From contig NZ_JAPSLH010000037.1 in NCBI RefSeq assembly GCF_031180965.1, positions 1 to 34,905 on the forward strand: a DNA stretch of 34,905 nucleotides. Direction: 5' to 3'. Below are positions 1 to 32,584 of the stretch, piece after piece. The translations under genes and the position numbers were made by a program. How positions within the stretch are numbered: the first letter of the stretch is position 1; every line of letters begins with the position of its first letter. Below the pieces are notes generated by a model. It did not search any database, had not been told where the DNA came from, and saw nothing but the letters and a program-made list of their open reading frames with translations. Source of the stretch: Chelativorans sp. Its GTDB lineage: Bacteria > Pseudomonadota > Alphaproteobacteria > Rhizobiales > Rhizobiaceae.

Positions 1-893
1 GCCCCGGTGACGACTGCCGCACCGCCCTGCTTCGCCTCTTCGGTCTCCAGCGGCCCCAGCGAGCCCGGAACCTCCTCCGGCGCGACCTTGAACGACGACA
101 GAGCGCGCATGGTCTCGGGACCGGCTACGCCATCTGCAGTGATCTTTCTGGCGCGCTGGAACTCGGTCAAGGCCGCCTTGGTGCTCGGCCCATAGTCGCC
201 GTCCACCTTGACCGCGTAGCCGGCGCGCACGAGCAGCGCCTGAAGCTCCCTCACCCGCGCGCCCTTGGAGCCCATGCGCAGCATGCCGGACGCGGCAGAG
301 ACCGGCTTCTTGCCGGATAGTCGGGCATAGGCGGCCGCCATCTTCGTGTGGTAGCGGTTCCTCGAATAGCCCGGCCCGTTGTAGCCGCGGGCGAAGGCGG
401 TGAAGTCTTTGCGCTGCAGTTCGTCGGCGAGGCCGAATTTCTCGATGTAGCACGCCATCGCCTCGATCTGGCCGGCGACATCCTTCCGGACCGCCGCGAC
501 CATGGCCTGCACGCTCTCGTAGCCGAGCGCCTTCCAATGGGCGCCCATCACCTGCCCTACGCCGTAGGATGCGCTTTCGAGCGCAGCGTCCTCGTCGATC
601 GCCATAGCCGCCCTGAGCATCCGCCAGCGCGCGGCCTGGCTCGATGGGTTCTTGACCGCGCCGGCGTTCGGATGGGCAAGCCCTTCCTTCCGTGCCCGCT
701 CGCGCTCCTTGCCCGTGAGACGCCGGTCGAAATAGTGCCCCTCAAAGCGGATCAGCGGCTCCTTGCGGCCTTCCACAGTCGCATAGGTCTTGCCGTCGCT
801 CTCGACCTCGATCACGGCCATGAGCACTTCGGCCTCGACTTTCATGCGCGCGGCAATGCGCCGGACCGCGCGAGCGGTCGCAGTGTCAAGCAT
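1..893 (-). CDS. Phage endolysin: N-acetylmuramidase with peptidoglycan-binding domain (partial, 3' end off window)
   Basis: The reading frame opens at the ATG at 893-891 and stays open to the left edge, so the C-terminus is missing. Residues about 20-180 match the N-acetylmuramidase family (PF11860): an early Glu-rich motif (AVIEVES, with E29 the likely acid), then LIRFEGHYF, then SYGVGQVMG and FARGYNGPGY. Residues about 200-265 match a PG_binding_1 module (LQALLVRAGY, VDGDYGPSTKAALTEFQ). The enzyme would cleave the glycan backbone of peptidoglycan to release virions. No signal peptide is seen, so it should depend on a holin, which is not in the window. It is the last gene of the leftward late transcript seen here. 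It is divergent from the acyltransferase gene. Confidence 0.9.
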   Translation of the reverse strand, partial: MLDTATARAVRRIAARMKVEAEVLMAVIEVESDGKTYATVEGRKEPLIRFEGHYFDRRLTGKERERARKEGLAHPNAGAVKNPSSQAARWRMLRAAMAIDEDAALESASYGVGQVMGAHWKALGYESVQAMVAAVRKDVAGQIEAMACYIEKFGLADELQRKDFTAFARGYNGPGYSRNRYHTKMAAAYARLSGKKPVSAASGMLRMGSKGARVRELQALLVRAGYAVKVDGDYGPSTKAALTEFQRARKITADGVAGPETMRALSSFKVAPEEVPGSLGPLETEEAKQGGAAVVTG

Positions 894-1004
894 GGGATGT
901 GTCCTTTTTGGATGTCAGGCGAATTGGTGAAGGCCGGGCGACGCGCGGCTTTAATCCTAGCGGGATTTGCTGTATGGCCGGGAGAACTTCCCAGCGGGCC
1001 GTTG

Positions 1005-2147
1005 ATGTCGAAGAAGATCGAATTTGCGCATATGCTGCGCGGCGTGGCCGCACTGTCGGTTCTCGTCGCCCACTATTGCTCCACGTTCTTCGTGCATCAT
1101 GAAGGCCTTGCAGGCCTGCTCCAGGTACCGCCACTGGCCGAACTTCCCGCTCCAACCGGCGTGGTCAGCCTGATCGGGGGTTACGGAACTGTGTTGGGTC
1201 AGTTCGGCGTGGGAGTCTTCTTCATCATCAGCGGCTTCGTGATCCCGTTTTCCATTCGGTCAGGGAGCCGAATGTCGTTCATGACGCGCCGGGCGCTCCG
1301 CATCTTTCCGGTCTACATCGCTGGCTTCGGCGCCGTCATCGCATCGATTTGGGTTCTCACCCGCTATGCCGGGTCTGACTTTGGCTACACGACGCCGCAC
1401 ATTTTGTCCCACTTCGGCATCCTGACGCGCGGCGTTCTGGGGTATGGTCGCATCGACGGCATCAGTTGGACGCTCGAGGTGGAGCTTGTCTTTTACATTG
1501 TAATGGCGGCCGTCGGAGCGCGGGTCTTTGCGCGCGGGGCTTGGGGCCTTGTGGGCGCTGCGATCGCAGTGGCTGCCCTGTCAATCGCCAGCACTCTTGC
1601 TCTTCATCATGGCCTTTACAACGTAGTCGGCAACACCGGTTTCCAGCTCTGGGCGTCAATATTGCTGATCCTGGGCCTGGCCTATCACGCGCTGTTCACA
1701 AGGCAGATTTCCAGCTCATCGTTTCTTGGCGTCCATGCCGCGGTCGTGACGCTGAGCATCGCCGTGTGGCTCTGTTCGGACCGCACTGTCTATACATGGG
1801 AATGGATGGCTGGATACCTCGTCGCAATGGCGGTTTTTGCCGCAGGGTTCTTGCTGCACGACCGCATCCGGTTGATCCCAGGGTTCAATCATCTCGCCAA
1901 TATCAGCTATCCGCTTTATGTCGTGCACGCTCTTCTCGGATACGCCGTCATGTACTGGGCAATCGACAATGGATTGAGCGCTGAAGCGGCGATCCTCTTG
2001 GCAATCGGCGCCGCCTATATCCTTTCTGTCGGACTTCACTTGGGTGTTGAAAAGCGCTTTATGCGCTCGACCACCGGGCCGGTCGGGCCTCATGTGAGCA
2101 GGTCAATCGAGGACCGCCTGCCCGCCTCTGCCTCCACCGCTCCCTAG
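1005..2147 (+). CDS. Membrane acyltransferase, OafA/YrhL type (Acyltransferase_3)
   Basis: This is a 380-residue integral membrane protein with about ten hydrophobic segments. It has the family signatures in order: LRGVAALSVLVAH near the start (H23 is the expected catalytic His), RRALRIFPVY, and ISWTLEVELVFYI. Members transfer acetyl or other acyl groups to surface glycans such as O-antigen or exopolysaccharide. The start at 1005 was chosen because the protein N-terminus aligns there with the family; the same frame is open upstream to 348 but antisense to the endolysin. No strong ribosome binding site is visible. The gene runs against the late operon and ends in a 4-base stop-to-stop overlap with the gene at 2144-2497. 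The likely role is lysogenic conversion by surface-glycan acylation, blocking receptor use by related phages; that role is inferred. Confidence 0.88.
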   Translation: MSKKIEFAHMLRGVAALSVLVAHYCSTFFVHHEGLAGLLQVPPLAELPAPTGVVSLIGGYGTVLGQFGVGVFFIISGFVIPFSIRSGSRMSFMTRRALRIFPVYIAGFGAVIASIWVLTRYAGSDFGYTTPHILSHFGILTRGVLGYGRIDGISWTLEVELVFYIVMAAVGARVFARGAWGLVGAAIAVAALSIASTLALHHGLYNVVGNTGFQLWASILLILGLAYHALFTRQISSSSFLGVHAAVVTLSIAVWLCSDRTVYTWEWMAGYLVAMAVFAAGFLLHDRIRLIPGFNHLANISYPLYVVHALLGYAVMYWAIDNGLSAEAAILLAIGAAYILSVGLHLGVEKRFMRSTTGPVGPHVSRSIEDRLPASASTAP

Positions 2148-19925: not shown

Positions 19926-20507
19926 TCAGTTGGCCTTGGCCGGCTGGTGAGCGGACTGGAGGTCCTTCACCATGGCGGCATAGGCATCGGTAACGGTCTT
20001 GTCGGCGTCGTTCGCGGTCTGGAGACCGCCGGCGACGACAGTGCGGAAGGGATCGGCAGTCTTCACGTCCTTGGCGATGGCCTTGAACATGCCTGCGATC
20101 TCGGCATCGGACGCGTCCTTGACCATCTCATCGCCGAGCTTGGCCTTGACGGCTGCACGGCGGAGATCGGCATCCGACTTGCCGACGATCTCGATGCCGC
20201 TGTCGATCGCCTTCACGGTCGTGACGAGCTGCGCCCGATCCGCCGCCATACGGTCGATATCCTCCGGTTTCGGAAGCGCATCCTGCGCCTTCTTCAGGTC
20301 GGCCTTGAGGGTGCCGATCTCCTCGTCCTTCTTCGCGAGCTCGGCGTCCTTGGCCGCGATGGCCCGCTGGTGCTTCGCCTCGACATCGGCGAGCTTGGCC
20401 GCCGAGGACTCCAGGTCCTTGAGCAGCTTAGTGATGGCCTGGGCGCCCTGGTCGGTGGTCTGCACCGACAGTCCGTCCACGACCACAGTGCGAAGTGCGT
20501 CACTCAT
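19926..20507 (-). CDS. Nested internal-start scaffold protein
   Basis: An in-frame ATG at 20507 (residue 194 of the protease-scaffold protein, MSDALRTVVV) follows AAGGAG nine bases upstream. Translation from it would give a 193-residue scaffold without the protease domain, the same arrangement as lambda C/Nu3. The junction falls exactly between the protease domain and the coiled-coil region. Expression is inferred from the ribosome site. Confidence 0.55.
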   Translation of the reverse strand: MSDALRTVVVDGLSVQTTDQGAQAITKLLKDLESSAAKLADVEAKHQRAIAAKDAELAKKDEEIGTLKADLKKAQDALPKPEDIDRMAADRAQLVTTVKAIDSGIEIVGKSDADLRRAAVKAKLGDEMVKDASDAEIAGMFKAIAKDVKTADPFRTVVAGGLQTANDADKTVTDAYAAMVKDLQSAHQPAKAN

Positions 20508-21086
20508 GGTGCGCGTCTCCTTGTCCATGGTTGGAGTGATCGGGGCCGGGCCCCATTGCGCCGCATCGCCGATGCGGACCTGAGAACCGGCGCGGCCGCG
20601 GGCGACGATCGCCACGTGGTTGAGCCGGATGTTCCGTTGAATGGCGTCGTAAGCTTCCCCGGTGGGCGTCTTGCCGGTGGACCAATCGAGGTCACAGGTA
20701 TAGCCTGCGGAGAGTTCGCGCTTGCCCGCCTCGATATCCTGAATGGCGGCTTCATCGCTGACCATCAGGGGGACGCGGATGAAGATGCCCTCGCCCGCAA
20801 CCTCGTCGCCGGTCTGGCCGACAGCGTGCTGCTTCCAATTCTGTGAGGTGACGAGATCGGCGGGATGGTCATTCGTGACCGGGCGGTGCGCAGCGCTCTT
20901 GAGCGTGGCTTCCTTGAAGACCTCATCGCGCGGTCGGTAGACCCGCACGATCGGCATCTCAGGCTTGCCTACCTCGCTCCCGAGATACGTCTGCACGCCA
21001 GTGCGAGCGATACGGGCATCGGCAACAAGATAGCCGTCCTCGCGCCGCCGGGTGCCGGCGACGACTGCTGCGTCGGTGAATTGCAT
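19926..21086 (-). CDS. Prohead protease fused to scaffold (DUF2213)
   Basis: A 386-residue protein. Residues about 1-185 form the DUF2213 protease domain: VYRPRDEVFKEATLKSAAHRPVTNDHPAD with H74, and AGKRELSAGYTCDLDW with S126, the expected His/Ser catalytic pair of HK97-type prohead proteases. Residues about 195-386 are charged and helical with a long coiled coil (LADVEAKHQRAIAAKDAELAKKDEE), typical of a scaffold. A good internal ribosome site and ATG at 20507 would express the scaffold alone. The fusion drives capsid assembly and is then cleaved. Confidence 0.88.
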   Translation of the reverse strand: MQFTDAAVVAGTRRREDGYLVADARIARTGVQTYLGSEVGKPEMPIVRVYRPRDEVFKEATLKSAAHRPVTNDHPADLVTSQNWKQHAVGQTGDEVAGEGIFIRVPLMVSDEAAIQDIEAGKRELSAGYTCDLDWSTGKTPTGEAYDAIQRNIRLNHVAIVARGRAGSQVRIGDAAQWGPAPITPTMDKETRTMSDALRTVVVDGLSVQTTDQGAQAITKLLKDLESSAAKLADVEAKHQRAIAAKDAELAKKDEEIGTLKADLKKAQDALPKPEDIDRMAADRAQLVTTVKAIDSGIEIVGKSDADLRRAAVKAKLGDEMVKDASDAEIAGMFKAIAKDVKTADPFRTVVAGGLQTANDADKTVTDAYAAMVKDLQSAHQPAKAN

Positions 21087-21381: not shown

Positions 21382-21445
21382 AGGCTATTAGCCGGTGACT
21401 CGACACAGGGTTGCAGTTGTGGTTCGTTTCGCGCGGGAGGCAACT

Positions 21446-21730
21446 ATGACCACATATTTCATTATCTACGACCTCAATAAAGAAGCGGAGAATTACGCCA
21501 AGAAGAACAAGGCCGTTCGGGACCGCATAAAAGAGCTGTTCTCAACCTATTGGTCCCACCTGGATTCCACATGGATCGTGGTGACCGACATGAAGGCCAA
21601 GGCAATCCGAGACGATCTCAAAACGCTTCTCGACAACAATGATGAACTGCTTGTTGCTAGCGCTGGCGGCGAAGGTGCTTGGCATGGTTTCAATGACAAG
21701 GGCAGTAAGTGGCTTAAGGACAACCTTTAG
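21446..21730 (+). CDS. Cas2-fold (SinR-like) small protein, plus-strand cargo
   Basis: A 94-residue protein with a GGGAGG site before the ATG at 21446. The N-terminal strand TTYFIIYDLNKE, the helix with KAVRDRIKELFSTYW, the S-TWIVVTDMKA strand, the second helix RDDLKTLLDNNDELLVASAGG and the final AWHGF-strand give the ferredoxin-like beta-alpha-beta-beta-alpha-beta layout of Cas2/VapD. The family is often labelled SinR-like. No cas1 or CRISPR array is present, so it is not a spacer-acquisition component. Cas2-fold proteins can be nucleases or toxins (VapD). It is AT-richer than its neighbours, suggesting recent gain. Confidence 0.72.
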   Translation: MTTYFIIYDLNKEAENYAKKNKAVRDRIKELFSTYWSHLDSTWIVVTDMKAKAIRDDLKTLLDNNDELLVASAGGEGAWHGFNDKGSKWLKDNL

Positions 21731-21735
21731 GCAGC

Positions 21736-23571
21736 CTAATCCGCTTTAACCTCTTCGAATATCTCCGGCCCCAGCACGATCCGGCCCTGGTAGGGCTCGA
21801 CCTTGCTGAGATCGATGTCGCCGCCGATCTGGATGGAGATGTGCGGCTGATACTCCGGCCAATCCCAGGACGCGCCTGCCTCGCGGATTTCGCGATTGCG
21901 CCACACCAGCTCGTTGGCCGTGATCAGCAGCGCGACATATCGGCCGTCTTCACCAAGCCGCTCTATTTGGCGCGGGCCGCCGACGGCGATTTCCAGCTTC
22001 TCCGACCAGGACGTGCCCACCTTGAACCAATCGACCGGCTCGCGGCTGTAGGCAATCGTGACGTGGAGGTCGGGGACGATGTCTGTGAAGCCCTGCGACT
22101 TGGCCCATCGGACGATTTCCGCTCGATTGAGCACATCGCGGCGCACATACAGCGTACGCGGAGCAGCATCATTTGCGGCGCGTTGCATCCGCTGAACAGG
22201 CGCAGGCAACGGCGCTACCGCCGCGGCAACATCAACTTCATCCTCCTCCTGCTCGGAAAGCCGGCCGTATTCGTCGATGGCCGCTTCCAGCCCAGGCAGC
22301 GAGCCGTCCTCAACGAAAGCGTTCACCAGCGCATCGCTCAGCGCATCAATAGGCATGAGAGGCTGGGACTGACCGTTCCCGGCGATCGCCCTCGCCGCGT
22401 CAGCCTTCAGCTTGAAGATGTCGGCCTTTTCCTTGTCTGACATCTGCCAGAGCGGCGCCCATTCGTAGTAAATGTCGGTCGGCCGACTGCCGAGCGCCGA
22501 GCGGATCAGCGCCTCGTCCATACGATGCATGGCGGGCGTCATGATGATCGACTGTTCTGACGAAAGCCGGTCGTAATAGTTCCGGAGGTCGCTCTCGCCC
22601 GTCGCGTTCATACCTGCGGGGGACTGCCCCAGCAATCGGGTCGCCGGAATATCGGCCGCACCGGAAACGATCTGCAGGAACCTGTCGAGCACGTCGGGCA
22701 GTGTGGAGAAATTCGCCGACTTGCTCTCGTATTCCTCTTCCTTGTCAAGCAACAGCGTGCCGTTGATGCCCTTGGCCGTGTTCGCGAGGGCGTAGCGGTT
22801 GATGATCTTATTCTGGTATTCATCTTTGCCCAGCGAGGCCATGAAATTGGGCACGCGGATGATGTCGATCTTGGCCTCGAATACGAGGCTGGCAATGTTT
22901 GCCGCAGTGCCGTCGGCCTGCTTGATCGCCTCCATGACCGACAGCAATACGCTATCGCCCCAGGCGAGATCACCACCTCCGATCAGATCGACGTCCGGTT
23001 GAGGATTACCAGAAAAGATCACTAGGCGGGACGGATGAATATCGACCTGAACCTTGTCTCCGGTGGTGAGCTGATAGACCTTCGGTCGGCCGTAGAATTC
23101 GCTCTCGACGTCTCGGTCGATCTCGCCAGCCTTCAACACACGGCGGGTGAGGACGGTGAGGTGGCGGATGCCTTGTTTCCTGACCCGCTCTACATCGAGT
23201 GGCTCGGCTAGATTCTGATCACCGGTGCCAATGTGGATAGCCGCACCGCCCCAAAGCCGCGCCTTTATCCTCGCCTCGAGCACCTTTCCTTGGACGTCGA
23301 GGCGCCGCTCTTCGGCTTCGATTGCCTCGATCTGGTTGGCCTCGGCCTGCCAGTCGCGCCACGCCCGCACGCTATCGAATGCCGGAATGTCAACAATCTT
23401 CCGCGGCAGCCAGGCACCGCGATAAGCGTTGAGCAGCTGCTCATCGGTTAGGATCGGCACGGCATAGTAGCTGCTCGCCGCCTTGTCCCGATCCGTCCCC
23501 ATCCGCGAGACGAGATTGGTCAGGTTGTCAGCGAGATAGCCGACGAAATTCACAACCGCGCCCATAGACAA
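21736..23571 (-). CDS. Portal protein (DUF1073) with C-terminal Acb1-like 2H phosphoesterase domain
   Basis: A 611-residue protein. Residues about 1-440 are the DUF1073 portal core (YYAVPILTDEQLLNAYRGAWLPRKIVDIPAFDSVRAWRDW region near the start, AWGDSVLLSVMEAIKQ, and GQSPAGMNATGESDLRNYYDRLSSEQ), which forms the dodecameric DNA channel. After an acidic, Pro/Ala linker (about 440-475), residues about 480-611 carry two 2H phosphoesterase motifs: HVT at 503-505 and HIS at 577-579. This is the Acb1 anti-CBASS fold, whose phage T4 member hydrolyses cyclic-oligonucleotide alarms. Whether the domain is active, or cleaved from the portal, is not shown here. Confidence 0.88.
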   Translation of the reverse strand: MSMGAVVNFVGYLADNLTNLVSRMGTDRDKAASSYYAVPILTDEQLLNAYRGAWLPRKIVDIPAFDSVRAWRDWQAEANQIEAIEAEERRLDVQGKVLEARIKARLWGGAAIHIGTGDQNLAEPLDVERVRKQGIRHLTVLTRRVLKAGEIDRDVESEFYGRPKVYQLTTGDKVQVDIHPSRLVIFSGNPQPDVDLIGGGDLAWGDSVLLSVMEAIKQADGTAANIASLVFEAKIDIIRVPNFMASLGKDEYQNKIINRYALANTAKGINGTLLLDKEEEYESKSANFSTLPDVLDRFLQIVSGAADIPATRLLGQSPAGMNATGESDLRNYYDRLSSEQSIIMTPAMHRMDEALIRSALGSRPTDIYYEWAPLWQMSDKEKADIFKLKADAARAIAGNGQSQPLMPIDALSDALVNAFVEDGSLPGLEAAIDEYGRLSEQEEDEVDVAAAVAPLPAPVQRMQRAANDAAPRTLYVRRDVLNRAEIVRWAKSQGFTDIVPDLHVTIAYSREPVDWFKVGTSWSEKLEIAVGGPRQIERLGEDGRYVALLITANELVWRNREIREAGASWDWPEYQPHISIQIGGDIDLSKVEPYQGRIVLGPEIFEEVKAD

Positions 23572-26830: not shown

Positions 26831-27868
26831 TTGTCGTATTCAGTTCGGTATCAGGTATTCGTCAGCTCCACGTTCACCGATCTAGTGGAAGAACGCGCTG
26901 AGGTAATTCAGGCAATCTGGGAACTAGATTGTATCCCCACCGGCATGGAGGCTTTTGTTGCTTCCAATGAGAGCCAATGGGACGTGATCAAGCGCGTCAT
27001 CGACGAATGCGATTACTACGTCCTGATTATTGGAGGGCGCTATGGCTCTGTCACCGGTGAAGGGATCAGCTACACCGAAAAGGAGTACCGCTATGCCAAG
27101 AAAATAGGAATTCCTGTGTTAGCGTTCGTCCATGCCAATCCGGATGAAATACCCTCGGGAAAGTCAGAACGTGATGAAGCATCAAGGAAAAAGCTCGAGG
27201 CGTTCCGTGCAGAAGTTATGAAGGATCATCCAGTAAGAAATTGGTCCTCAGCTTCAGAGCTCGGTGGCCTTGTGTCGAGATCCCTAGTGCGGGAAATGAA
27301 AGTTAGCCCAAGACCAGGTTGGATTCGAAATGATGGATCATCTCCAATCGCGCTACTAGAACAAATCAACAAGCTCACAGAAGAAAATCGTGAGCTTCGC
27401 AATGATCTTGAAAAGCAAATGATAGACATTGATGATGACACTTTGCAATCAGGATCTGACAAGATAACCTTGTCTGGATCGCGAAAAATAGCAACTCCAG
27501 GAAATTACTTTGGAAATACTGAGATGTGGACTGCCGATGTTTCTTGGGATGACATATTTCGCGATATTGGTCCGTCGCTAATCAACGAAGCAACTGAAGT
27601 CACGCTAAGAAATTTAATCGCTCGTTTCCACGTTTTCGACCCTGTCCCAAAAGGGCATACATTCAAAGGTGACGACAGAATCGACCTTGAAGTATGGAAT
27701 GAGATACTTATTCAGTTTCGCGCGCTGGGCTATATCGAGCAAGGCATTAAGAAGCGCGGCGTAAATGACCGGAATAGTTATTGGCGCATCACCCCAAAAG
27801 GAGATCGTCATCTTGTAAGTTTGCTTGCTCGACGCAAGAGAAGTACGGATTCAGAGCTTTTGGCTTAG
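26831..27868 (+). CDS. DUF4062-domain protein with coiled coil and winged-helix-like C-terminus, AT-rich cargo
   Basis: A 345-residue protein starting at TTG 26831 behind GGAGA. Residues about 5-100 are the DUF4062 domain (YQVFVSSTFTDLVEERAEVIQAI, then YYVLIIGGRYGSV and SYTEKEYRYAKKIGIPVLAFVH), a TIR/SLOG-like alpha-beta domain often fused to defence-type effectors. Residues about 175-200 form a coiled coil (LLEQINKLTEENRELRNDLE). The C-terminal 90 residues (VWNEILIQFRALGYIEQGI, SYWRITPKGDRHL) look like a winged helix. The gene is clearly AT-richer than its neighbours. It runs opposite to the phage genes and may be an exclusion or sensing gene; function is inferred. Confidence 0.82.
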   Translation: MSYSVRYQVFVSSTFTDLVEERAEVIQAIWELDCIPTGMEAFVASNESQWDVIKRVIDECDYYVLIIGGRYGSVTGEGISYTEKEYRYAKKIGIPVLAFVHANPDEIPSGKSERDEASRKKLEAFRAEVMKDHPVRNWSSASELGGLVSRSLVREMKVSPRPGWIRNDGSSPIALLEQINKLTEENRELRNDLEKQMIDIDDDTLQSGSDKITLSGSRKIATPGNYFGNTEMWTADVSWDDIFRDIGPSLINEATEVTLRNLIARFHVFDPVPKGHTFKGDDRIDLEVWNEILIQFRALGYIEQGIKKRGVNDRNSYWRITPKGDRHLVSLLARRKRSTDSELLA

Positions 27869-30492: not shown

Positions 30493-30821
30493 TGAAGCGG
30501 CTCCAGCTTGTACGAGGCCCGGTTGCCGCGGCCCGTCGGACCCCTCGGAATGGTCCAGCCATACAGGGCTAGCTTGTCGCGAAGCCGTGAGAGCTGGACG
30601 TTAAGGGCGGTGCGAGCGTTCTCCGGCTCGTGCGAACCGCTATAGATGCGCTCGATCAAAAATTCGGCCGGGACGGATCGGGGATATGCCTCGGCGAGCG
30701 CATTGACGATCGTGCGCGGTACCGTGGCTAGCGGAGCGGCGTCGAGCGCTTCTATGGGCGCCCTGCCCGCGTTTATGGGTTGGCCGCAGCAGGGGCAGTG
30801 ACGAGGCGTATGGAATGTCAT
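30489..30821 (-). CDS. Winged-helix protein with N-terminal CxxC, possible regulator
   Basis: A 110-residue protein. The N-terminus has CPCCGQ (C9, C12). Residues about 65-108 match a winged-helix DNA-binding pattern close to the OmpR-type Trans_reg_C (TALNVQLSRLRDKLALYGWTI, then a GRGNRASYKL wing). It is likely a DNA-binding protein of the replication operon, perhaps a regulator. Overlaps of 4 bases with both neighbours show it is translationally coupled. Confidence 0.72.
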   Translation of the reverse strand: MTFHTPRHCPCCGQPINAGRAPIEALDAAPLATVPRTIVNALAEAYPRSVPAEFLIERIYSGSHEPENARTALNVQLSRLRDKLALYGWTIPRGPTGRGNRASYKLEPLQ

Positions 30822-32584
30822 TCCGCCGCCTCCCGAAACGAAGTTTCCTCGGCGACGCGCCGCTTCGGTGCTGCATCAGCCATGATCGCGCCGACGCACG
30901 CCTTCATTTTCGCGACCGAGACGGCATTGCCGATCTGCTTGATCTTCTCGGTTTTTGTCCCGGCGAATTCGTATTCCTGATCTTCGGTGTTGAAGCCCAT
31001 GGCAGCCGCCAACTCGTGCGGCTCGAGCATGCGAAACAGGATGTCGTATTGCGGCGTGGCCTCGACCAGATTAACGCGGCCGCTGGCGCACAGCGTCGGC
31101 GTCGGCTCATCTACGTTGTGCACCCGCGGCGCCTGACCTTCGCGCTCGCCGAACTGTGCCGCGATGAAGGCGAGCTCGCCTCGGTTGGCGGTTGTGATGG
31201 TGGGAAGCGGATCGGCCTCGACGTCGCGGGCGCGATCACTGCCGTCCGCGTGTGTGATCGGCACGACCATACCGAAGCGGCCCTTGGTCGTGATCGGCGG
31301 CAGCGGGTCGTCGGCCGTGAAGCACGGAGGCGGGGCTCCAGCCTCGATCTGCCATCCGTTGCCGTAGTAGGGCGAAATCAGAACATGGCTGTGCTTCGCC
31401 ACCTGCGTCGGTGTTGGCTCGCTCACCGGTCGCGGCGCGCCTTCCCCCTGACGGGAGAGCATGAAGGGTTCGACGAGGTAGCCGCCGCCGTCGCAGTTCG
31501 ATGTCGGCGTCGGCTCATCCACGGAATGGGCGCGGGTCTCACCGTAGCCGTCGCCGTGGCGATTTAGAATGAAAGGCTCGATGAGCATCGGCCGGGCGCA
31601 GCCCTGGCGCTCCTCGGCCGCTGCCCCTCCGGTTGTGATCGTCGGAAGGGGGTCGCCGACGGATCGCGCCGCGCCGCTGTTGTGCTGCGAGAGCAAGATT
31701 GGCTCGGCGAGGCCAATATGGTTACCGTTTGCCGCGATCGTCGGCAGCGGTGCGTCCACCGATTGCCCCGCCATATGCTGGCGCAGGATGACCAGGAACG
31801 GCTCCGGCCAACCAAATTTCTGTGCGCCGGCATAGATTCTCGCCAGCGTCTTCGGCGCCAGAGGCTTCTTGCGGTTGAAGATCGACTTGCCCTTGATCGA
31901 CCAATCGATGATCTCGCGCGCGGGACGCCATGGTTTGGCATCGGAGAACAGCTCTCCGTAACTGCTGCTCCCATGGCGTTTGCGGTGGGTCGGCATCGGC
32001 CACGCGACCTTCCGTCTATCCGAGCGAGCCATAAGGATGAAGCGCTGCCGCGTTGTGGCATCGCCGTAGTCTGCTGCGTTCAGCTTCCGCCATTCCGGTT
32101 CAAAGCCGAGGCGCTTGATCGTCTCGATCCAGGCGTAAAAATACTCGCCCTTGCGGGATTTAATTGGCTTACCGGTCCGTAGGTCGACTGGCCCCCAGCC
32201 GATGAACTCCCACACGTTCTCGATGATGATGCGCTTTACCCTTAGCTCCGTCAGCCAAGTGATGATGTGCCATGGGTCGGAGCGCTGCTGATCCGATGTC
32301 GGCTTGCCGCCGCGCGCGACGCTATGATGCGTGCAAGTCGGCGATGCCATCAGCAGGTCGAGATAGCCTTCGGGAACGATCAGGTGCGGCCGGACGGTGG
32401 CGATATCCTGGACGTAGTGCCGCGCCTCCGGATGATTGCGCTTATGCGTCTCTATGGCGACGCCCCAGTGGTTGACGCATACCAGCTCCATTTCGAGCCC
32501 AAGTTCGGCGAGCGCCCGCTGACAACCGGTGGAGGAGCCGCCAGCACCACAGAGGAGGTCGGCGACGAGCATCTTTCGCTTCAT
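30818..32584 (-). CDS. DNA cytosine-C5 methyltransferase with repeat-built recognition region
   Basis: A 588-residue protein with the C5 methyltransferase motifs in order: DLLCGAGGSSTG (motif I, 9-20), SPTC with catalytic C84 (motif IV, PTC instead of PPC), ENV at 122-124 (motif VI), TTRQRFILM around 177-185 (motif VIII), and GNAVSV at 552-557 (motif X). Between VIII and X, where the target-recognition domain belongs, residues about 265-510 are seven repeats of 32-46 residues, each with a PxPT-like core (279, 312, 358, 390, 427, 459, 494). It would methylate phage DNA against host restriction. It overlaps the helicase gene by 4 bases. Confidence 0.92.
   Translation of the reverse strand: MKRKMLVADLLCGAGGSSTGCQRALAELGLEMELVCVNHWGVAIETHKRNHPEARHYVQDIATVRPHLIVPEGYLDLLMASPTCTHHSVARGGKPTSDQQRSDPWHIITWLTELRVKRIIIENVWEFIGWGPVDLRTGKPIKSRKGEYFYAWIETIKRLGFEPEWRKLNAADYGDATTRQRFILMARSDRRKVAWPMPTHRKRHGSSSYGELFSDAKPWRPAREIIDWSIKGKSIFNRKKPLAPKTLARIYAGAQKFGWPEPFLVILRQHMAGQSVDAPLPTIAANGNHIGLAEPILLSQHNSGAARSVGDPLPTITTGGAAAEERQGCARPMLIEPFILNRHGDGYGETRAHSVDEPTPTSNCDGGGYLVEPFMLSRQGEGAPRPVSEPTPTQVAKHSHVLISPYYGNGWQIEAGAPPPCFTADDPLPPITTKGRFGMVVPITHADGSDRARDVEADPLPTITTANRGELAFIAAQFGEREGQAPRVHNVDEPTPTLCASGRVNLVEATPQYDILFRMLEPHELAAAMGFNTEDQEYEFAGTKTEKIKQIGNAVSVAKMKACVGAIMADAAPKRRVAEETSFREAAE

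What the first reader, a model, noticed from the sequence alone, without database searches (positions are those of the whole stretch)
21736..23571. Portal protein fused to an Acb1-like anti-CBASS phosphoesterase domain
The C-terminal 130 residues after a typical DUF1073 portal and a Pro/Ala linker carry two 2H phosphoesterase motifs, HVT (503-505) and HIS (577-579). In T4 Acb1 the same fold degrades the cyclic nucleotides that activate CBASS defence. A structural virion protein bearing an anti-defence domain would deliver it with the DNA at 12 copies per virion. Related portal fusions exist in databases (I recall the naming, not a test), so the novelty lies in activity and delivery.
Basis: partly seen in the sequence, partly recalled or inferred. 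Interest (0 to 1): 0.75.

Follow-up and report, generated by a model that had tools for sequence, protein, structure and literature searches.

The report
Portal protein carrying Acb1-like phosphoesterase domain
A phage's DNA-entry ring protein carries an extra enzyme-like domain related to a known disabler of a bacterial alarm signal; such fusions have been described before, so this is one more member of a known kind whose activity is still untested.

Summary
The gene is on the minus strand (23571-21736). It encodes a DUF1073 portal (PF06381, residues 45-393), a flexible linker, and a C-terminal 2H phosphoesterase domain of the Acb1 family (PF23474, residues 472-611, E 6.6e-34). The domain model (pLDDT 92) best matches solved Acb1 (7t26, TM 0.74). 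The tetrad H503/T505/H577/S579 is intact; of 110 non-redundant DUF1073 fusions collected, 109 keep it with Thr or Ser at the fourth place and one has an unreadable first His. The domain is under purifying selection like the portal core. Two Acb1 base-stacking positions (W74, lid W147) are not kept here.

The fusion is not new: 2H-portal fusions were reported in 2017 with much the same hypothesis, and the Pam3 homologue is in the PDB (8hds). Delivery with the DNA is unsupported: 8hds models 442 of 621 residues, apparently lacking this domain, and portals normally stay in the head.

I favour an active signal-cleaving enzyme, made with the head proteins at the stage when CBASS can be triggered. 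The same domain also occurs on a second portal family (PF04860) and as a separate gene beside portals.

The parts
21736..23571 (-). Whole gene: DUF1073 portal fused to Acb1-like 2H phosphoesterase; 611 codons from TTG at 23571, more likely start ATG at 23565
22393..23439 (-). Portal core, Phage_portal_3 / DUF1073 (residues 45-393)
   Evidence: Pfam E 3e-111; same place in the genome search; fold matches the Pam3 portal, 44% identity over 445 columns
22171..22251 (-). Flexible Ala/Pro/acidic linker (residues 441-467)
   Evidence: pLDDT below 50 at 441-467; linker dN/dS 0.25 against 0.13 for the domains; composition Ala 22%, Glu 12%, Asp 10%, Pro 10% over 110 fusions
21739..22158 (-). Acb1-family 2H phosphoesterase domain (residues 472-611)
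   Evidence: PF23474 E 6.6e-34; 7t26 by fold E 1e-6, TM 0.74
22057..22065 (-). First catalytic motif HVT (503-505), equivalent to Acb1 H44/T46
   Evidence: alignment
21835..21843 (-). Second catalytic motif HIS (577-579), equivalent to Acb1 H113/T115
   Evidence: alignment

Best explanation
A DUF1073 portal protein bears, on a flexible linker, a folded and probably active 2H phosphoesterase of the Acb1 family. The most likely job of the domain is to cleave cyclic di- or trinucleotide alarm signals (CBASS-type) in the infected cell. I think it acts mainly from newly made portal protein during head assembly, rather than by being injected: it is translated together with the head proteins, and head-assembly proteins are among the known CBASS triggers. 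Shown here: the fusion, the fold, the catalytic residues, the purifying selection, and that the domain is an accessory part of the portal. Inferred: catalysis, substrate, timing and place of action.
For: Family and fold: PF23474 E 6.6e-34, 7t26 as best fold match. Tetrad kept in 109 of 110 fusions, the other unreadable; 19 of 20 plus one X in the sample not chosen on the domain. Y475, W571 and E606 align with Acb1 Y12, F107 and E141. Domain dN/dS 0.13 equals the portal core 0.135 and is below the linker 0.25. The domain is accessory: of 80 DUF1073 portals in viral contigs 24 carry it, 53 do not and 3 run off the contig; 3 of the 6 found in 297 genomes of the order carry it. Coupling to head genes rather than to one portal: the domain is also fused to PF04860 portals (L015, L016; L207) and is a separate gene beside the portal in Synechococcus phage Yong-M3-232 and Edwardsiella phage ZHS. 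CBASS can be triggered by a prohead protease and evaded by capsid mutations (PMC12409349 and PMC11312562, passages; the primary papers were not read).
Against: No activity data. Acb1 W74 is replaced by Glu and the C-terminal lid with W147 is missing in the window protein, so affinity or substrate may differ from T4 Acb1; only 48 of 110 fusions have the lid Trp. The host genome has no CD-NTase by PF18144. CD-NTase is found in 4 of 14 host genomes of related fusions against 27 of 297 in the order sample; adding the three fusion-bearing genomes of the order (0 of 3) gives 4 of 17, Fisher p 0.04 and 0.08. The taxa are not matched, so this is inconclusive. Late timing is inferred from gene order, not from expression data.
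Confidence: 0.5

Rival explanations
1. Virion-delivered effector: the domain sits inside the capsid, is cut from the portal by the head maturation protease, and is ejected with the DNA to destroy signals at once.
For: In 8hds 442 of 621 residues are modelled and the domain appears absent, as cleavage would give. A DUF2213 head maturation protease/scaffold gene follows at 19926-21086. A related DUF1073 portal, L171, carries a PBECR3 nuclease in the same place, like an effector cargo. Proposed in print.
Against: Absence from a cryo-EM model is equally expected of a domain on a flexible linker. No cleavage site was identified. Portals are not generally known to leave the head (recalled). Two relatives make the domain as a separate gene without a portal link.
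Confidence: 0.2
2. RNA-directed 2H enzyme: an RNase or 2',3'-cyclic phosphate end processor (Usb1- or LigT-like), not an anti-CBASS enzyme.
For: The superfamily does this chemistry; LigT, Usb1 and plant CPDase structures are weaker fold matches. Iyer et al. preferred an RNase role by analogy with PBECR fusions. The lid and W74 of Acb1 are missing in the window protein.
Against: The closest family and fold are Acb1 by a wide margin (E 1e-6 against 5.6e-3 or worse for LigT and Usb1), and the position of the adenine-contacting E141 is Glu here and in 93 of 110 fusions.
Confidence: 0.17
3. Non-catalytic structural or packaging role of the domain in the portal (DNA or RNA binding).
For: It is part of a structural protein; purifying selection equals that of the core.
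Against: 53 of 80 DUF1073 portals do without it; the catalytic residues are among the most conserved in the domain; it exists as a separate protein.
Confidence: 0.08
4. A free Acb1 is also made from an internal start in the linker.
For: An in-frame ATG lies at residue 462 of the printed frame; best ribosome-site match of 4 or more bases in 37 of 110 linkers against 22.5% of core stretches.
Against: Matches of 5 or more are no commoner (7 of 110 against 7.4%), and 47 of 110 linkers have none against 36.6% of core stretches; the window ATG has no such site upstream.
Confidence: 0.04

Closest known systems
Pam3 cyanophage portal (PDB 8hds)
   Same: Same two-part architecture over the whole length, E 1.5e-168; the domain region is 49% identical
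   Different: Keeps a Trp in the lid region after the domain; from a myophage; no function of the extra domain was seen in the passages I read
Acb1 of phages FBB1 and T4 (anti-CBASS nuclease; 7t26/7t27)
   Same: 2H fold, HxT/HxS-T tetrad, aligned Y12, F107-site aromatic, E141-site Glu
   Different: Stand-alone 152-aa protein; has the lid (W147) and an aromatic at position 74, both missing in the window protein; forms a separate branch of the tree
2H domains fused to MuF or portal, Iyer et al. 2017 (PMC5512222) and the 2022 follow-up (PMC9503650)
   Same: Same architecture class and the same nucleotide-signal hypothesis
   Different: Those texts name no Acb1 in the passages seen, and I did not see whether this sequence subfamily was among theirs
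PBECR nuclease fusions to portal
   Same: A DUF1073 portal (L171) has a PBECR3 domain in the same C-terminal place
   Different: Unrelated predicted RNase fold

Membership tests
Acb1 (PF23474) | Sequence family score above the curated cut-off | tested here: met
   117.1 bits, cut-off 27
Acb1 (PF23474) | 2H phosphoesterase fold like solved Acb1 | tested here: met
   7t26 best match, E 1e-6, TM 0.74
Acb1 (PF23474) | HxT/HxT catalytic tetrad | tested here: met
   HVT and HIS (Ser for the fourth Thr); 41 of 110 fusions have this Ser
Acb1 (PF23474) | Aromatic base-stacking residues Y12, W74, F107, W147 (T4 numbering, mapped through FBB1 with a one-residue shift that I inferred) | tested here: inconclusive
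   Y475 and W571 fit; the W74 site is Glu and the W147 site is beyond the C-terminus. Of 8 stand-alone proteins aligned only 2 have an aromatic at 74, and 4 have Trp at 147 (7 an aromatic), so neither defines the family
Acb1 (PF23474) | Adenine-contacting E141 | tested here: met
   E606 by alignment
Acb1 (PF23474) | Cleaves 3'3'-cGAMP and cAAA; protects phage from CBASS | not testable with these tools
   Needs biochemistry and phage assays
DUF1073 portal (PF06381) | Family score, portal fold, and place after terminase | tested here: met
   E 3e-111; Pam3 and E217 portals as best folds; terminase genes 25720-23884 upstream, protease and capsid genes downstream
Virion-injected effector | Released from the virion into the cell | not testable with these tools
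   No data; 8hds leaves the region unmodelled

The most novel reading that the evidence does not exclude
The portal C-terminus is an exchangeable cargo slot: Acb1-like, PBECR-type or other anti-host domains are built into the head at the portal, are freed by the maturation protease, and enter the cell with the DNA or act locally where head assembly triggers CBASS. That one Acb1 subfamily rides on two different portal families would be the sign of it.
Probability: 0.15. Interest if true: 0.7.

Novelty: new member of a known kind. Interest (0 to 1): 0.35.

Why it matters
If the domain is active, some phages have tied an anti-CBASS enzyme to a structural protein, which would couple counter-defence to head assembly, the stage at which CBASS can be triggered. 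The comparative set (fused, separate and absent versions; lid present or lost; two portal families) makes the question directly testable with enzymes and phages already isolated, such as Pam3 and the Rhizobium phages. The fusion itself is already in Pfam, the PDB and the literature, so the surprise is limited.

Tried and rejected
Internal translation start giving a free domain: not supported at 5 or more matching bases, slight excess at 4. Link with host CBASS: inconclusive. Of the 20 loci I gave 14; left out were L008, L010, L012, L014, L017 and L019 (short contig, broken gene, domain absent or partial match). 'Prohead protease' fusions: the labels on DSS3P8 gp129 and ZHS_4 first suggested a third fusion partner, but these ORFs are little more than the Acb1 domain. 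PADLOC gives nothing for this protein at E 0.01. Literature searches for Acb1 with portal protein and CBASS (1 paper), for 2H phosphoesterase with portal (6 papers) and for five related terms (8 papers) gave no experimental test of a portal-fused domain among the passages I saw; most subscription papers are not held and the Pam3 structure paper was not read. Papers: PMC5512222 passages plus section 20 in full; PMC9503650, PMC9117128, PMC7824862, PMC10329688, PMC12657218, PMC9382816, PMC11249213, PMC12287305, PMC12409349 and PMC11312562 passages only.

Full report
What is there. The gene occupies 23571-21736 on the minus strand, between the terminase genes (TerS 25720-25142, TerL 25209-23884) and a DUF2213 head maturation protease gene (21086-19926), followed by the cement and major capsid genes. 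Its product has a DUF1073 portal core (45-393, E 3e-111) and a PF23474 Acb1 domain (472-611, E 6.6e-34). PHROGs also match it as a portal over 12-607 (phrog_146) and match the C-terminus alone to phrog_755, labelled 'RNA ligase', a label that phage records also give to the stand-alone 57B genes. The start is probably the ATG at 23565 rather than the TTG (inference).

Fold. The domain alone was modelled with 46 sequences at mean pLDDT 92.4. Of 95 PDB matches at E up to 10 (50 listed), the first two are FBB1 Acb1 (7t26 E 1e-6, TM 0.74; 7t27 E 8e-6), then a phage BCSR5 phosphodiesterase (1.3e-3) and LigT-type and Usb1 structures. The full protein was modelled at mean pLDDT 78.9 with residues 1-32, 270-272 and 441-467 below 50, so the linker is predicted flexible. 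Its best fold match is the Pam3 portal. By sequence that chain is homologous over its whole length, 621 residues, including the Acb1 domain at 473-610, but its structure entry has 442 modelled residues and is not among the 50 rows listed for the domain alone. I infer that the domain is unmodelled in the Pam3 virion, through mobility or cleavage. The output does not say which residues are missing.

Catalytic and binding residues. Acb1 uses H44, T46, H113 and T115, stacks bases with Y12, W74, F107 and W147, reads adenine with E141, and closes a C-terminal lid, 145-152 (PMC9117128, passages). Mapped through FBB1, the window has H503, T505, H577, S579, Y475, W571 and E606. The W74 position is E537, and the protein ends before the lid Trp. 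I collected 140 domain sequences, 127 distinct, 110 of them fused to a DUF1073 portal. Among the 110: first His 109 plus one X; first Thr 110; second His 110; fourth residue Thr 69 and Ser 41; Y12 site Tyr 110; E141 site Glu 93; F107 site Trp/Phe/Tyr 82 and His 25; W74 site Glu/Asp 105; lid Trp 48. Because one collecting pattern held HVT, the fairer sample is the 20 distinct fusions found through a portal-core pattern: 19 keep the tetrad and one has an X.

Selection. Over 246 pairs among 104 fusions the median dN/dS is 0.135 for the portal core and 0.13 for the domain; over 202 pairs it is 0.25 for the linker. Median dS is near 1, so the ratios are rough.

Distribution. In IMG/VR, 80 DUF1073 portals found with a portal-core pattern (ranked by likeness to a portal without the domain) comprise 24 with the domain, 53 without and 3 running off the contig, one of these with a long unexamined extension (L189). 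Of the 53, 48 end 26-88 residues after the core and five have 125-256 residues more. Three of these five proteins were scanned (L127, L130, L171): L171 has a PBECR3 nuclease, the other two have no further Pfam domain. In 297 genomes of the window's order, PF06381 occurs in 6 and three of these have the fusion; PF23474 occurs in 4. In 385 genomes of the class PF23474 passes the cut-off in 2. In 50,697 phage records 304 match the domain, 58 of them over at least 80% of it.

Other arrangements. It is a separate ORF directly after the portal in Synechococcus phage Yong-M3-232 and just before the portal ORFs in Edwardsiella phage ZHS. In L018 it is joined to a Gp49/RelE-like domain. In a tree of 80 rows the DUF1073 fusions, PF04860 fusions, L018, L026 and L010 fall together (91/93, below the starred level), away from the RcXuper-type and T4-type stand-alone proteins; the PF04860 pair lies with DUF1073 fusions (94/93). 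The bootstrap had not settled and several long branches are unsure, L034 among them. So the domain has probably moved between portal families, but the support is moderate.

How it may work. Acb1 proteins cleave CBASS signals; T4 Acb1 and nine others were tested by Hobbs et al.. CBASS can be set off by a prohead protease, and capsid mutations evade it (passages of PMC12409349 and PMC11312562; primary papers not read). A domain translated with the portal would appear with these triggers. In E217 the portal C-terminus forms a barrel projecting into the head (PMC10329688, passages), so in the finished virion the domain would lie among the DNA, out of reach of the cytosol unless cut free. That placement is inferred for this portal. 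I therefore put action in the producing cell at about 0.5, injection at 0.2, RNA as the target at 0.17, and a structural role at 0.08.

CBASS in hosts. The window's own genome has no PF18144 CD-NTase. Among 14 genomes with related fusions 4 pass the cut-off, against 27 of 297 in the order sample. Adding the three fusion-bearing genomes of the order (0 of 3) gives 4 of 17. Fisher p is 0.04 and 0.08 with unmatched taxa. I draw no conclusion.

What is known. Iyer et al. 2017 describe 2H domains fused to MuF or portal and propose RNase action or degradation of defence nucleotides (section 20 read in full). The 2022 paper adds packaging and injection against SMODS and CRISPR signals (passages). Pfam names the domain Acb1, and the Pam3 homologue has been deposited. 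The finding is therefore a new member of a known kind. What I add is the residue-by-residue check, the missing lid and W74, the selection estimate, the accessory distribution, the second portal family, and the likely absence of the domain from the Pam3 model.

Noticed in passing
window 26831-27868 (+): A 345-aa DUF4062 protein lies on the strand opposite to the head genes, between the primase and terminase regions; DUF4062 is recalled from defence-like proteins, and the PADLOC match is weak (E 0.0097).
   Followed up: partly
window 21395-21730 (+): A 111-codon ORF convergent with the portal gene looks by eye like a small Cas2/SinR-type protein; no Pfam match reached its cut-off and PADLOC gave none.
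   Followed up: partly
window 30818-32584 (-): A C5 cytosine methyltransferase of 588 aa whose middle part, unmatched by Pfam, repeats units like DPLPTIT/EPTPT several times; perhaps repeated target-recognition modules.
   Followed up: no
window 348-2147 (+): A 599-aa acyltransferase (Acyl_transf_3; PHROG O-acetyltransferase) at the edge of the tail genes, possibly modifying host surface sugars.
   Followed up: no
L018 7833-8894: Acb1 domain fused to a Gp49/RelE-like domain, followed by a helix-turn-helix ORF that looks like its antitoxin, behind a head gene with an intein-like stretch (the last two by eye).
   Followed up: partly
L207 973-3240 (-): PF04860 portal, then Acb1, then about 175 further residues without a significant Pfam match: a three-part portal.
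   Followed up: partly
L171 2932-4887: A DUF1073 portal with a C-terminal PBECR3 nuclease domain instead of Acb1.
   Followed up: partly
L033 4986-5438 and L034 2116-2715: Phage genes annotated 'prohead protease' that are Acb1-domain proteins (L034 PF23474 E 2.8e-22; L033 matched by my domain profile).
   Followed up: yes
L010 and L078: Portal-Acb1 genes whose portal reading frame is interrupted just before the domain.
   Followed up: no
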